From contig JAGCDE010000025.1 of the NCBI GenBank assembly GCA_017651315.1, forward strand, positions 1 through 54,331: DNA of 54,331 nucleotides, written 5' to 3'. The notes below the pieces were generated by a model, which was not told the origin of the DNA, searched no databases, and was given only the letters and a program-made list of their open reading frames with translations. Below are positions 1,808 through 3,858 of this stretch, one piece after another. This DNA comes from Bacteroidaceae bacterium. GTDB lineage: Bacteria; Bacteroidota; Bacteroidia; Bacteroidales; Bacteroidaceae. The position numbers and the translations under genes were made by a program. Numbering within the stretch: the stretch's first letter is position 1; every line of letters begins with the position of its first letter.

Positions 1808-1838
1808 TTTGTTGTACAAAATATTGTACGTACTTTTG
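1808..1838 (+). promoter_or_regulatory. Promoter and operator of the Phd/YoeB-like operon
   Basis: TTTG at 1808-1811, a 19-base spacer and TACTTTTG at 1831-1838 match the Bacteroidetes promoter pattern, 17 bases before the ATG at 1856. The spacer contains the inverted repeat GTACAA-N4-TTGTAC (1814-1829), well placed for autorepression by the Phd-family antitoxin encoded directly downstream. Confidence 0.7.
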
Positions 1839-1855
1839 TAACAAAACAGACAACT

Positions 1856-2095
1856 ATGGTTACAACAACTATTTCTGATTTCAGAAAAAGCATAAAGGAT
1901 TACGTAGATGCGGTCATTTCAAATAATGAGCCGGTATTGATAAACCGCGGCAGGCAGGGAGCCGTCCTTGTGTCGCTTGACGAGTATAATGTCCTGGCCC
2001 GCACAGCTTCTATTCTAAACTCAAGAAGTGCAATTGACATTATTGAAGCTTCAAGTGAGCAAAAGTTTGTAGAAGTTGATATTGACGCGTTATGA
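1856..2095 (+). CDS. Phd/YefM-family antitoxin
   Basis: 79-residue protein of typical Phd/YefM size. The N-terminal half (MVTTTISDFRKSIKDYVDAV, then PVLINRGRQGAVLVSLDEYN) is the family's DNA-binding dimerisation fold; the C-terminal tail (about residues 50-79, acidic) would be the toxin-binding segment. The stop overlaps the start of the next gene by 4 bases (ATGA), so the two are translationally coupled. Expected role: neutralise the partner and repress the operon through the inverted repeat at 1814-1829. The family call is firm; the activity of its partner is doubtful (see next gene). Confidence 0.9.
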   Translation: MVTTTISDFRKSIKDYVDAVISNNEPVLINRGRQGAVLVSLDEYNVLARTASILNSRSAIDIIEASSEQKFVEVDIDAL

Positions 2096-2841
2096 AACTT
2101 CTGTTCACACCTGAAGCTCTTGAATCATTTCAGGAGATAAAACGCGTATCCCAGGAGGATGCCGATAAGGTTAAAGAGATACTAAAGGACATCTTGCTTC
2201 ATCCTGAAGATGGCAAAGGTAATCCAGTACCATTAACAGGAGCCTTATCTGGGCTATGGAGTAGGGAGTATGGAATTCAGCAGCAGATAGTATATTCAGC
2301 AAGCAATGACGAGGTCAAGATTTTTGCTGTAGGACAGAGCATCATAACGACAAATCAAATCGGTCAAGCTGAATTATCCCAGACACAATACAGCGAGCAG
2401 GAATACCGCTCTGTCCTTAAACAAATGGCTGCCAACCGCGGAAAGGGCGAAGACCCGAAAGTTGGTATATTCTGGTATAACATAGGGCGCGATGAACTGT
2501 TTGGGGTAGTATCGCACCCTTTGAACGATTATTCCAGAGCAAATGCATCGGACGGAAGAATAACGTGCTCAGAACTGCATGAGGACGTCTGGAAAAAGGA
2601 ATTCCGCAAGCAACGTTATAAAGGCGATAACAGCGGACCTTTCATAGGGGCTTATCAAGACAAACCGCGTGGACGCATATTCTACAACATTGAGGCTGAC
2701 ACATTCGAGGTGGCTACAGGCAAATGGCTGCAGGATTATCCGCATGTATATGAGTTGATTCTGCGAGAGTTCAACCTTCCTCCAGAGAGGACTTCCGCCA
2801 AATATGCCGTCCACTGGGATATTGGTCAGTCCTGGCAATAA
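2092..2841 (+). CDS. YoeB/Txe-fold protein lacking catalytic residues, with a 165-residue C-terminal extension
   Basis: Residues 1-84 align without gaps to E. coli YoeB, including GKGxPxPL (41-48), LSGLWSR (52-58) and IVY (66-68). The YoeB RNase residues are replaced: Glu46 is Val, Arg65 is Gln, His83 is Ser (and Tyr84 is Ile). Residues about 85-249 form an extra domain absent from YoeB (249 versus 84 residues), with segments KVGIFWYN, RGRIFYNIEADTFEV and KYAVHWDIG; I do not recognise this domain. Coupled to a Phd-type antitoxin by a 4-base overlap. It may be an inactive toxin scaffold carrying a different effector domain, or a repressor partner. Fold confident; function unknown. Confidence 0.8.
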   Translation: MKLLFTPEALESFQEIKRVSQEDADKVKEILKDILLHPEDGKGNPVPLTGALSGLWSREYGIQQQIVYSASNDEVKIFAVGQSIITTNQIGQAELSQTQYSEQEYRSVLKQMAANRGKGEDPKVGIFWYNIGRDELFGVVSHPLNDYSRANASDGRITCSELHEDVWKKEFRKQRYKGDNSGPFIGAYQDKPRGRIFYNIEADTFEVATGKWLQDYPHVYELILREFNLPPERTSAKYAVHWDIGQSWQ

Positions 2842-2898: not shown

Positions 2899-3489
2899 TT
2901 ATGGAATCACTGCACGGACCCACTCCGGCAAGTCATCCGTATAACGTTTGGCTATCCTGCCATCGGTGGTTCTGAGAATCAGGCGCGGGGCGGCGTTTTC
3001 TGTCGAGTTGTCATAGAGATAAACCCTGTCGGCAATCTTTATGGCCTCTGATATGTTCTTGAGTGAGCTGTAGTATCTGGAGATAGTCTTGGAAATGGGC
3101 ACCTCATGCCCGCCGTTAAGATAACGTTGCGCTATGCGGTTTATGTTTATCAGCGGCGATTCCGTGCACACATAAAATATCCTGATGAAAAAGCCTGCAT
3201 CCTTAGCCTTGCGCAGGAAATCCATTTTCTCGGCCGATGAAAACACCGTTTCAAACACAAAGTCAGTTCCGTTTGACAAGCATTCGTATCGCTGTCCGGT
3301 AGCCGTCTGTGCCGCTTTCAGGACTGCATCGGCAGAGTTCCAGTCACCGTATTGTTCCTGTGCGATATTATCGGGATTGATGTAAAGACTGTCAGCGCCC
3401 CACTCATTCTTGAGTAGCTGTTCTGTAGTTGTGGTCTTTCCCGAACCGTTCGGCCCGGCCACAATACACATTACAGGTCTCTTTTTCAT
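2899..3489 (-). CDS. Zeta-toxin-like P-loop kinase
   Basis: 196 residues. The N-terminus carries a Walker A loop GPNGSGKTT (residues 12-20) followed by INPDNIA, then a segment FVFETVFSS typical of the zeta toxin/COG4185 group (predicted ABC-type ATPase/kinase). Zeta toxins phosphorylate UDP-N-acetylglucosamine; whether this relative does so is not known. It is encoded 6 bases downstream of an XRE-type regulator (3496-3858), an arrangement common for COG4185 kinases in Bacteroidetes, instead of the epsilon antitoxin of Gram-positive plasmids. Its stop lies against the permease scrap at 2858-2896, consistent with insertion. Confidence 0.82.
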   Translation of the reverse strand: MKKRPVMCIVAGPNGSGKTTTTEQLLKNEWGADSLYINPDNIAQEQYGDWNSADAVLKAAQTATGQRYECLSNGTDFVFETVFSSAEKMDFLRKAKDAGFFIRIFYVCTESPLININRIAQRYLNGGHEVPISKTISRYYSSLKNISEAIKIADRVYLYDNSTENAAPRLILRTTDGRIAKRYTDDLPEWVRAVIP

Positions 3490-3495
3490 AGTATC

Positions 3496-3858
3496 TTATT
3501 TTAAGCTCTTTATCTCTTCCAGTTTTTTGCGCAACACCTCATGGGCGTTGAATGAAGATGCCATTGCCGATTCGCAAACCTGATGCATTATCTCCTCAAG
3601 CATGTATTCCTGCGGCTCTTCCAATGATGACAGCCTGTATTGCCTGATGTCCTGCCTTTTTACAGCCTCGTCATCCACGCCGCATCGGGTACCGAAATAG
3701 GCCAGCACCTGATTAACCTTGTCCATCCTGAGACTCTGCTTGCCCTGCTCCAGTTCACGCAGGAACCTCAGCCCCACACCGGCCCTTGCCGCCAGCTCCG
3801 GCTGCGTAAGATGCCGCTCCTTGCGGCATCTCTTTATATAAGCGCTGATACTCTCCAT
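3496..3858 (-). CDS. XRE-family HTH regulator, putative antitoxin of the zeta-like kinase
   Basis: 120 residues: a HipB-like helix-turn-helix at about residues 6-62 (RKERHLTQPELAARAGVG, then LRELEQGKQSLR) and a C-terminal helical extension (about 75-120). The gene precedes the zeta-like kinase by 6 bases on the same strand, so both are presumably one operon. A 20-base imperfect palindrome overlaps the probable transcription start (3861-3880), suggesting autorepression. Antitoxin role is inferred from position only. Confidence 0.8.
   Translation of the reverse strand: MESISAYIKRCRKERHLTQPELAARAGVGLRFLRELEQGKQSLRMDKVNQVLAYFGTRCGVDDEAVKRQDIRQYRLSSLEEPQEYMLEEIMHQVCESAMASSFNAHEVLRKKLEEIKSLK

What the first reader, a model, noticed from the sequence alone, without database searches (positions are those of the whole stretch)
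2092..2841. YoeB-fold protein with all catalytic residues replaced and a new C-terminal domain
Ungapped alignment to YoeB puts Val, Gln and Ser at the positions of Glu46, Arg65 and His83, while fold-defining motifs are kept. A further 165 residues of unrecognised sequence follow. Together with an intact Phd-type antitoxin gene and a well-formed operator this suggests the toxin fold was reused as an antitoxin-binding module and the activity moved to the extension.
Basis: partly seen in the sequence, partly recalled or inferred. Interest (0 to 1): 0.72.

Follow-up and report, generated by a model that had tools for sequence, protein, structure and literature searches.

The report
Dead toxin fold carrying another domain
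In gut bacteria of animals, a toxin that normally cuts messenger RNA has lost its cutting residues, kept its antitoxin partner and DNA switch, and now carries a second, uncharacterised protein domain; it matters because it suggests toxin-antitoxin pairs can be turned into switches for other proteins.

Summary
Window 2092-2841 encodes a YoeB fold (AlphaFold2 mean pLDDT 90.5; best PDB match E. coli YoeB, TMt 0.94, 0.9 Å) with Val/Gln/Ser for Glu46/Arg65/His83, then a ~150-residue domain that no library names. It is not a lone decayed copy: of 31 fusion loci with a readable N-domain none has Arg65 and none has two of the three catalytic residues, while 46 of 46 distinct unfused YoeBs of the same family keep Arg65. 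Fused N-domains are one group (100/99). A Phd gene overlaps the fusion by 4 bp in 29 of 31. A YefM-type operator (paired TGTACA, 12 bp apart) precedes 29 of 30; the exception, L034, has a different antitoxin head with the same tail. The C-domain is not new to this protein: it also occurs alone, on viral contigs, behind short leaders and on L-aspartate-oxidase-like proteins, mostly without an antitoxin gene beside it. So 'toxin fold reused as antitoxin-binding module' is well supported by sequence; 'activity moved to the extension' is untested, and the free-standing copies speak against a poison. Best reading: a TA-derived repressor/carrier switch with a non-nuclease payload. Binding, repression and payload activity were not measured.

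The parts
1813..1830 (.). YefM/Phd-type operator: TGTACA (1813-1818) and TGTACG (1825-1830), 12 bp centre to centre
   Evidence: best pair starts at 1813; paired hexamers with at most 2 of 12 mismatches in 29 of 30 upstream regions, against 0.6% of base-shuffled sequences; core and spacing match the E. coli yefM-yoeB operator (PMC7730913, passages)
1831..1838 (+). TACTTTTG, fits TAnnTTTG (recalled as the Bacteroidetes -7 promoter element)
   Evidence: read; TAnnTTTG in 30 of 30 upstream regions, shuffle mean 2.4, max 8; the promoter meaning is recalled
1856..2095 (+). Phd/YefM antitoxin, 79 aa, tail KFVEVDIDAL
   Evidence: PF02604 E 3.1e-12; a Phd-like gene directly upstream of 29 of 31 fusions (by reading; Pfam-checked for the window and L048)
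2092..2841 (+). fusion protein, 249 aa
   Evidence: AlphaFold2 model mean pLDDT 90.5, pTM 0.59
2092..2337 (+). YoeB-fold domain, residues 1-82, lacking Glu46/Arg65/His83
   Evidence: Foldseek best hit E. coli YoeB 2a6r, E 6.6e-9, TMt 0.94, rmsd 0.9, 82 aligned columns
2338..2394 (+). linker, residues 83-101, low confidence in the model
   Evidence: mean pLDDT 62 and 73 for residues 81-90 and 91-100
2395..2838 (+). C-terminal domain, residues 102-249 (H-EE-H-EE-H-E-H), unnamed family
   Evidence: invariant over 58 aligned rows (28 fusions, the rest other architectures and viral copies): M112 G125 F127 W128 W167 Y188 P192 R193 G194 G210 L229 H241 W242 G245 W248

Best explanation
This is a YefM-YoeB toxin-antitoxin pair whose toxin has lost its nuclease residues and been kept as a docking and co-repressor module for an unrelated C-terminal domain. 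Phd binds the paired TGTACA operator and, through its VEVDIDxL-type tail, the YoeB fold; the complex represses the operon and holds the C-domain protein. Loss of Phd would both derepress the operon and free the C-domain protein, which then does whatever the free-standing copies do. Shown here, by sequence and prediction: fold, loss of catalytic residues, conserved Phd, tail and operator, purifying selection in the sub-groups where it could be measured, one origin of the fused N-domains. Inferred from YefM-YoeB: physical binding, co-repression, release by proteolysis. Unknown: the activity of the C-domain; I judge it more likely a binding or enzymatic payload than a poison.
For: Arg65 in 0 of 31 fused N-domains, His83 in 1, Glu46 in 6, Tyr84 in 0, never two of the catalytic three together, but Arg58 in 30 of 31. 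In 46 distinct unfused YoeBs of the family (taken by score from capped lists): Arg65 46, Glu46 43, His83 43, Tyr84 44, Arg58 46. Fused N-domains are one side of a branch, 100/99, in 100% of 200 bootstrap trees. Phd-like gene overlapping by ATGA in 29 of 31; L055 starts at its contig edge; L034 has another head with the tail EFIEVDIDNL. Paired operator in 29 of 30, absent only in L034. The best-scoring unfused, Arg65-bearing YoeBs (L025, L027 of the same genus; L026) have antitoxins ending NFVEVNIDEL or GIEVNLDEL. dN/dS over 12 usable pairs of 435: N-domain 0.13-0.35, C-domain 0.02-0.25 (11 pairs), Phd 0-0.13 (11 pairs). The N-domain matches YefM-bound and operator-bound YoeB structures 2a6q, 6l8e, 7v6w. 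Toxins usually act as co-repressors: PMC7730913, passage.
Against: No binding, repression or release was measured. None of the 12 dN/dS pairs includes the window or its own sub-group, the pairs share sequences, and 9 of 12 have dS above 1. The N-domain is the least constrained of the three parts, which also fits slow erosion. The tail type is not general: of 36 unfused YoeBs with an upstream ORF found, 3 end in it exactly and about 8 more carry it followed by WK, so it marks the ancestry more than it proves binding. A 98% identical sister copy (L002/L031, one record) has an in-frame TAG at invariant Trp128 with an intact Phd, so the payload is dispensable there, or the assembly is wrong. pTM 0.59 leaves domain orientation open. 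No C-domain match was recognised among the 50 hits shown of 536 (PDB) and of 680 (viral).
Confidence: 0.58

Rival explanations
1. One reading: the C-domain is a new toxin, neutralised by Phd through the dead YoeB fold, so this is still an addiction module.
For: Conserved antitoxin, tail and operator; strongly conserved C-domain residues and low C-domain dN/dS; a C-domain nested in the fusion group lies 15 bp behind an RHH-like/PIN pair in L082; sporadic, in 25 of 399 family genomes, one copy each.
Against: Of 80 loci, 18 encode it alone, 25 behind a short leader and 4 on NadB-like proteins. In the neighbourhoods I read by eye no antitoxin-like gene lies directly beside such a copy except in L082, though TA-like genes lie within a few kb in L065, L076, L087 and L094. 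A poison joined to a biosynthetic enzyme is hard to imagine.
Confidence: 0.2
2. Anti-addiction or decoy: the pair mainly supplies Phd, whose tail neutralises incoming active YoeBs; the dead toxin stabilises or stores it and the C-domain is a passenger.
For: The same tail type is found in antitoxins of Arg65-bearing YoeBs of the same genus.
Against: The C-domain is about as constrained as Phd and keeps its invariant residues in the 28 fusions aligned.
Confidence: 0.09
3. Decaying remnant of a YoeB toxin with an accidental read-through into a neighbour gene.
For: Triad lost; TAG in the sister copy; N-domain less constrained than the other parts; L042 and L054 are incomplete in the data held.
Against: 29 of 31 readable fusions run open through both domains (L031 has the TAG, L093 ends at its contig end), at identities to the window down to about 49%, all without Arg65 and in one group; N-domain dN/dS at most 0.35; operator kept in 29 of 30.
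Confidence: 0.04
4. The YoeB fold still acts on the ribosome or RNA by binding without cutting, with the C-domain modulating it.
For: Gly43, Trp56, Arg58 and Tyr68 are invariant in the 20 fused rows and held by 46, 43, 46 and 46 of 46 unfused ones; inactive-but-functional toxins were floated as a speculation by the authors of PMC2701414 (passage).
Against: Three fusions not among those 20 rows differ at 56 or 58 (L034, L055, L059), and positions 65, 83 and 84 are replaced by many different residues, not one new set.
Confidence: 0.06

Closest known systems
YefM-YoeB / Axe-Txe type II toxin-antitoxin systems
   Same: Toxin fold, Phd/YefM antitoxin directly upstream, paired TGTACA operator with 12-bp centre spacing (PMC7730913 passages)
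   Different: No catalytic Glu/Arg/His, a ~150-residue extra domain, below the NCBIfam Txe/YoeB cut-off
Cami1 (CARF-RelE fusion of type III CRISPR)
   Same: A RelE-family fold joined to another domain; Foldseek rank 26, E 3e-3, rmsd 22.4 over 153 columns, so a weak match
   Different: There the RelE part is the active effector and the other domain senses a ligand (recalled; papers seen only as a listing); here the RelE-type part is the stripped one
HipBST
   Same: A toxin-antitoxin system rearranged so that a piece of the toxin family serves as a partner protein (start of abstract seen in the listing; the rest recalled)
   Different: Kinase family, split gene, no payload domain (recalled)
Solo or exapted TA components discussed by Makarova et al. 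2009 (PMC2701414, passages)
   Same: The authors suggest TA derivatives exapted to other functions and possibly inactivated toxins
   Different: The main text held has no occurrence of 'YoeB'; I saw passages only

Membership tests
Txe/YoeB mRNA interferase | YoeB fold | tested here: met
   predicted model, TMt 0.94 to 2a6r
Txe/YoeB mRNA interferase | Profile score over family cut-off | tested here: inconclusive
   Pfam PF06769 over (42.2 vs 27), NCBIfam TIGR02116 under (43.4 vs 51.8)
Txe/YoeB mRNA interferase | Catalytic Glu46, Arg65, C-terminal His | tested here: not met
   V, Q, S in the window; Arg65 0 of 31 fusions against 46 of 46 unfused
Txe/YoeB mRNA interferase | Ribosome-dependent mRNA cleavage and growth inhibition | not testable with these tools
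   needs bench work
Phd/YefM antitoxin | Phd/YefM domain directly upstream of the toxin-fold gene | tested here: met
   PF02604 E 3.1e-12 in the window, 1.6e-12 in L048; 29 of 31 fusions by reading
YefM-YoeB operator | Paired TGTACA cores 12 bp apart centre to centre | tested here: met
   29 of 30 upstream regions, window at 1813
Type II toxin-antitoxin system | Toxicity neutralised by the partner protein | not testable with these tools
   no expression data
Named family for the C-domain (Pfam, NCBIfam, PHROGs, PADLOC, PDB sequences) | A match over cut-off or clearly significant | tested here: not met
   window protein in all four libraries; other members in Pfam, PHROGs, NCBIfam; PDB profile best E 0.68
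Any solved fold for the C-domain | Structural match of residues 102-249 | tested here: inconclusive
   only 50 of 536 PDB hits shown, all described as RelE/ParE/HigB-type or TA entries; no C-domain-only model could be made

The most novel reading that the evidence does not exclude
A lineage of toxin-antitoxin operons has erased toxin catalysis, most simply in one event, and kept the pseudotoxin, its antitoxin and its operator as an antitoxin-gated regulatory carrier that controls an unrelated, still unnamed protein domain, which elsewhere acts on its own, on NadB-like enzymes and on viral genomes.
Probability: 0.5. Interest if true: 0.72.

Novelty: new variant of a known kind. Interest (0 to 1): 0.6.

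Why it matters
Inactivated type II toxins have been suspected but are hard to tell from pseudogenes (PMC2701414, passage). Here some thirty loci share the loss of the active site while antitoxin, tail and operator persist, and one locus (L034) has a different antitoxin head and no matching operator but the same tail. That is a natural test case for a toxin fold persisting purely as a protein-interaction and regulatory module. It also puts an unnamed, strongly conserved domain with invariant Trp, His and PRG residues on the map, with NadB-like fusions as a functional lead.

Tried and rejected
Decay hypothesis: rejected on conservation, grouping and dN/dS, with the caveat that dN/dS could not be measured near the window. 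Internal duplication of the C-domain (two beta-beta-alpha units): profile comparison of the halves gave E 0.084, probability 0.7%, not supported. Naming the C-domain: nothing over cut-off; weak ones such as DUF5944 (E 0.035) disregarded. Annotated relatives in phage or plasmid records: a viral stand-alone copy against phages and a bacterial one against plasmids gave no match; with the full protein no record covered 80% of the query, and the rows shown (6 of 6 phage, 20 of 231 plasmid) match only its first 71-101 residues. Immunity-cluster idea for Bacteroides copies: Pfam of five proteins of L192 and L199 gave only REase-ARP over cut-off, left as a lead. Fold search with the full model. L034's 57-aa ORF has no Pfam hit over cut-off (ParG E 0.036), so its head is unnamed.

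Literature searches; none of the titles or starts of abstracts listed describes a YoeB pseudotoxin fusion. Only open-licence PMC papers are held, so this is weak evidence of novelty.

Full report
What is there. The window (G000:C21, a 2.69 Mb genome, 83% complete) holds a two-gene operon at 1856-2841: a 79-aa Phd/YefM antitoxin and, overlapping it by ATGA, a 249-aa protein. Its first 80 residues match YoeB_toxin (PF06769, E 8.2e-11), the antitoxin PhdYeFM_antitox (E 3.1e-12). Residues 46, 65 and 83 are Val, Gln and Ser where E. coli YoeB has its catalytic Glu, Arg and His (roles checked in passages of PMC7256200). No library names the rest. It is the only copy in its genome.

Fold. An AlphaFold2 model from 58 aligned relatives has mean pLDDT 90.5 and pTM 0.59. 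Residues 1-82 have the E-H-H-E-E-E order of YoeB; Foldseek puts E. coli YoeB first (2a6r, E 6.6e-9, TMt 0.94, rmsd 0.9 Å), followed by other YoeB and YefM-YoeB structures, two of them on operator DNA (aligned ranges are not printed, the aligned length of about 82 points to the N-domain). After a linker of low confidence, residues 102-249 form a second, mostly confident domain, H-EE-H-EE-H-E-H. I recognised no match to it among the 50 hits shown of 536 (PDB) or of 680 (viral, none at E <= 1e-3).

Relatives. A scan of genome contigs with the C-domain profile A1 gave 346 relatives, of which the tool kept the best 80; the other 266 were not seen. From their translations (middle part cut and L068-L076 reprinted) I count 33 YoeB-type fusions (31 with a readable N-domain; L042 is cut by a contig end, and L054's frame holds no N-domain), 25 with a short leader that looks helical by eye, 4 at the C-terminus of L-aspartate-oxidase-like proteins (one, L080, checked: FAD_binding_2 E 4.3e-87 and Succ_DH_flav_C E 7.8e-12; NadB is my reading) and 18 stand-alone, some with short leaders. 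Five more lie on viral contigs. By record title 76 of the 80 are Bacteroidota, 3 Spirochaetaceae and 1 Oscillospiraceae; many titles name ruminant or horse samples. In whole genomes the domain occurs in 25 of 399 of the family, one copy each, 10 of 295 of the order, one of them a fragment of 48 profile positions and one genome with two copies, and 2 of 395 sampled over the phylum, both in this family and one of them the window's own.

Unbiased look for unfused relatives. The 80 loci were found through the C-domain, so they cannot show whether the dead N-domain occurs without it. Two other searches can: the whole protein in 399 genomes of the family gave three other full-length fusions (98, 71 and 70% identity; the first with an internal TAG), and its best N-only hits had 34-37% identity; the fused N-domain profile in 251 genomes gave the same four fusions at E 1e-33 or better, then unfused hits from E 7e-22 down. 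The unfused ones that I could read keep Arg65.

Active site. In the 31 readable fusions Arg65 occurs 0 times, His83 once (L047), Tyr84 0 times and Glu46 6 times, never two of the catalytic three together, while Arg58 occurs 30 times (L031 is the 98% sister copy, and L045/L046 and L052/L053 are near-copies). As a control, 55 loci of unfused hits, taken by score from capped lists, gave 46 distinct proteins (L148 gave none): Arg65 46, Glu46 43 (Lys in 3), His83 43, Tyr84 44, Arg58 46; the three without His83 are L026, L029 and L171, of which L171 is short. The fused N-domains (31 rows with the window, without L031) are one side of a branch with support 100/99 and in all 200 bootstrap trees, on few columns. 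The replacements differ between members, so one new catalytic set is unlikely.

Antitoxin and operator. A Phd-like gene lies directly upstream with the 4-bp overlap in 29 of 31 (by reading; Pfam-checked in the window and L048). L055 begins at its contig end. L034 instead has a 57-aa ORF with the tail EFIEVDIDNL and a head without a Pfam name; relatives of that head occur in 3 of 151 genomes, in one of the four places (L152) followed by a RelE/ParE-looking gene (by eye). The 31 antitoxins listed (30 loci and the window) all end in [DN][IV][DE]xL; my script's stricter pattern scored 28, and the three misses end in TDIDAL. Of 46 unfused YoeBs an upstream ORF was found for 36; 3 of these (L025, L026, L027, the best-scoring unfused relatives) end in this tail type, about 8 more have it followed by WK, the others do not. 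Of 30 upstream regions (L044's is not held, L055 has none), 29 have two TGTACA hexamers 12 bp apart centre to centre with at most 2 of 12 mismatches, against 0.6% of base-shuffled sequences; exact GTAC pairs lie at spacing 12 in 24 regions, and at 16 and 24 in one each; the only region without the pair is L034's. The E. coli operator has this core and this spacing (PMC7730913, passages). Thus where the Phd head is absent its operator is absent too, and the tail is not.

Selection. dN/dS was computed for 435 pairs of 30 fusions (L031 and L093 dropped); 12 pairs had whole-gene dS of 0.02-1.6. N-domain ratios were 0.13-0.35, C-domain 0.02-0.25 and Phd 0-0.13 (11 pairs each for the last two). All are far below 1 and the N-domain is the least constrained. 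Limits: the pairs come from two sub-groups (L044-L046 and L048-L060), none holds the window, they share sequences, and 9 of 12 have dS above 1.

Evolution of the C-domain. In a tree of 85 C-domains (L031, L093, L054 and L103 dropped; few columns) the YoeB fusions form one group (99/96) with a single intruder, L082, a stand-alone copy 15 bp behind a PIN gene (PIN_3 E 1e-11) that follows a ribbon-helix-helix-like gene (hits below cut-off). L082 is a long branch, so its place is unsure. NadB-like fusions and viral copies are one group each (100/91, 100/96).

Mechanism. Best supported is a toxin-antitoxin operon turned into a regulatory carrier: Phd binds operator and dead YoeB, the complex represses the operon and holds the C-domain protein, and loss of Phd releases it. 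Fold (predicted), residue loss, conservation, operator and selection are shown within the limits above; binding, co-repression and release are inferred from YefM-YoeB. What the C-domain does is open. Its invariant Trp, His, Tyr and PRG residues are the same in 28 fusions and 30 other rows, so the payload probably keeps an ancestral activity; a divergent family member (L209) lacks part of the domain. In the neighbourhoods read by eye (3 C-domain-only loci, 8, 14, 8) only L082 has a TA pair directly beside it; TA-like genes lie within a few kb in L065, L076, L087 and L094. So I do not favour a poison. Against my reading: the sister copy has a TAG at invariant Trp128 while its Phd is intact.

Verdict. 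Observation confirmed, interpretation partly supported: reuse of the toxin fold yes (by sequence), a new toxin not shown, a new domain no. It fails membership of the Txe/YoeB nucleases on the catalytic residues but looks like YefM-YoeB in its regulatory anatomy.

Noticed in passing
window 2899-3858 (-): A Zeta_toxin kinase (PF06414, E 2.4e-14) with a Y4mF/HipB-type HTH gene (TIGR03070 E 7.4e-21) lies convergent to the operon, a second TA-like pair. In the 1.5 kb downstream of the sister copy (L002) I saw no zeta ORF, only a fragment resembling the HTH start (by eye).
   Followed up: partly
L077, L080, L081, L086: The same C-domain is fused to the C-terminus of L-aspartate-oxidase-like proteins in Prevotella or Prevotellaceae MAGs, one group (100/91).
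   Followed up: partly
L082:5196-6453: C-domain gene 15 bp behind an RHH-like/PIN pair; in the tree it sits inside the YoeB fusions on a long branch.
   Followed up: partly
L034:1050-1966: Small ORF with another head but the same antitoxin tail in place of Phd, and no paired TGTACA operator upstream.
   Followed up: yes
L002 / L031 (JAKSIV010000020.1): 98% identical sister copy with an in-frame TAG at invariant Trp128 and an intact Phd.
   Followed up: partly
L011, L020, L024: C-domain proteins with a further unnamed C-terminal stretch of roughly 120-130 residues.
   Followed up: no
L104:5998-6438: Stand-alone C-domain gene between penicillin-binding-protein-like and murE-like genes of a cell-wall cluster (named by eye).
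   Followed up: no
L111-L115: C-domain genes on viral contigs of 34-202 kb; of the two neighbourhoods read, L113's has tail-like and L111's queuosine-type genes (named by eye).
   Followed up: no
L199:78-1956: Stand-alone C-domain gene two genes downstream of a REase-ARP restriction endonuclease (PF22558, E 1.8e-12).
   Followed up: no
L209:1444-1857: Divergent relative in G233 that lacks the middle of the domain, PRG motif included; possibly an internal deletion.
   Followed up: no
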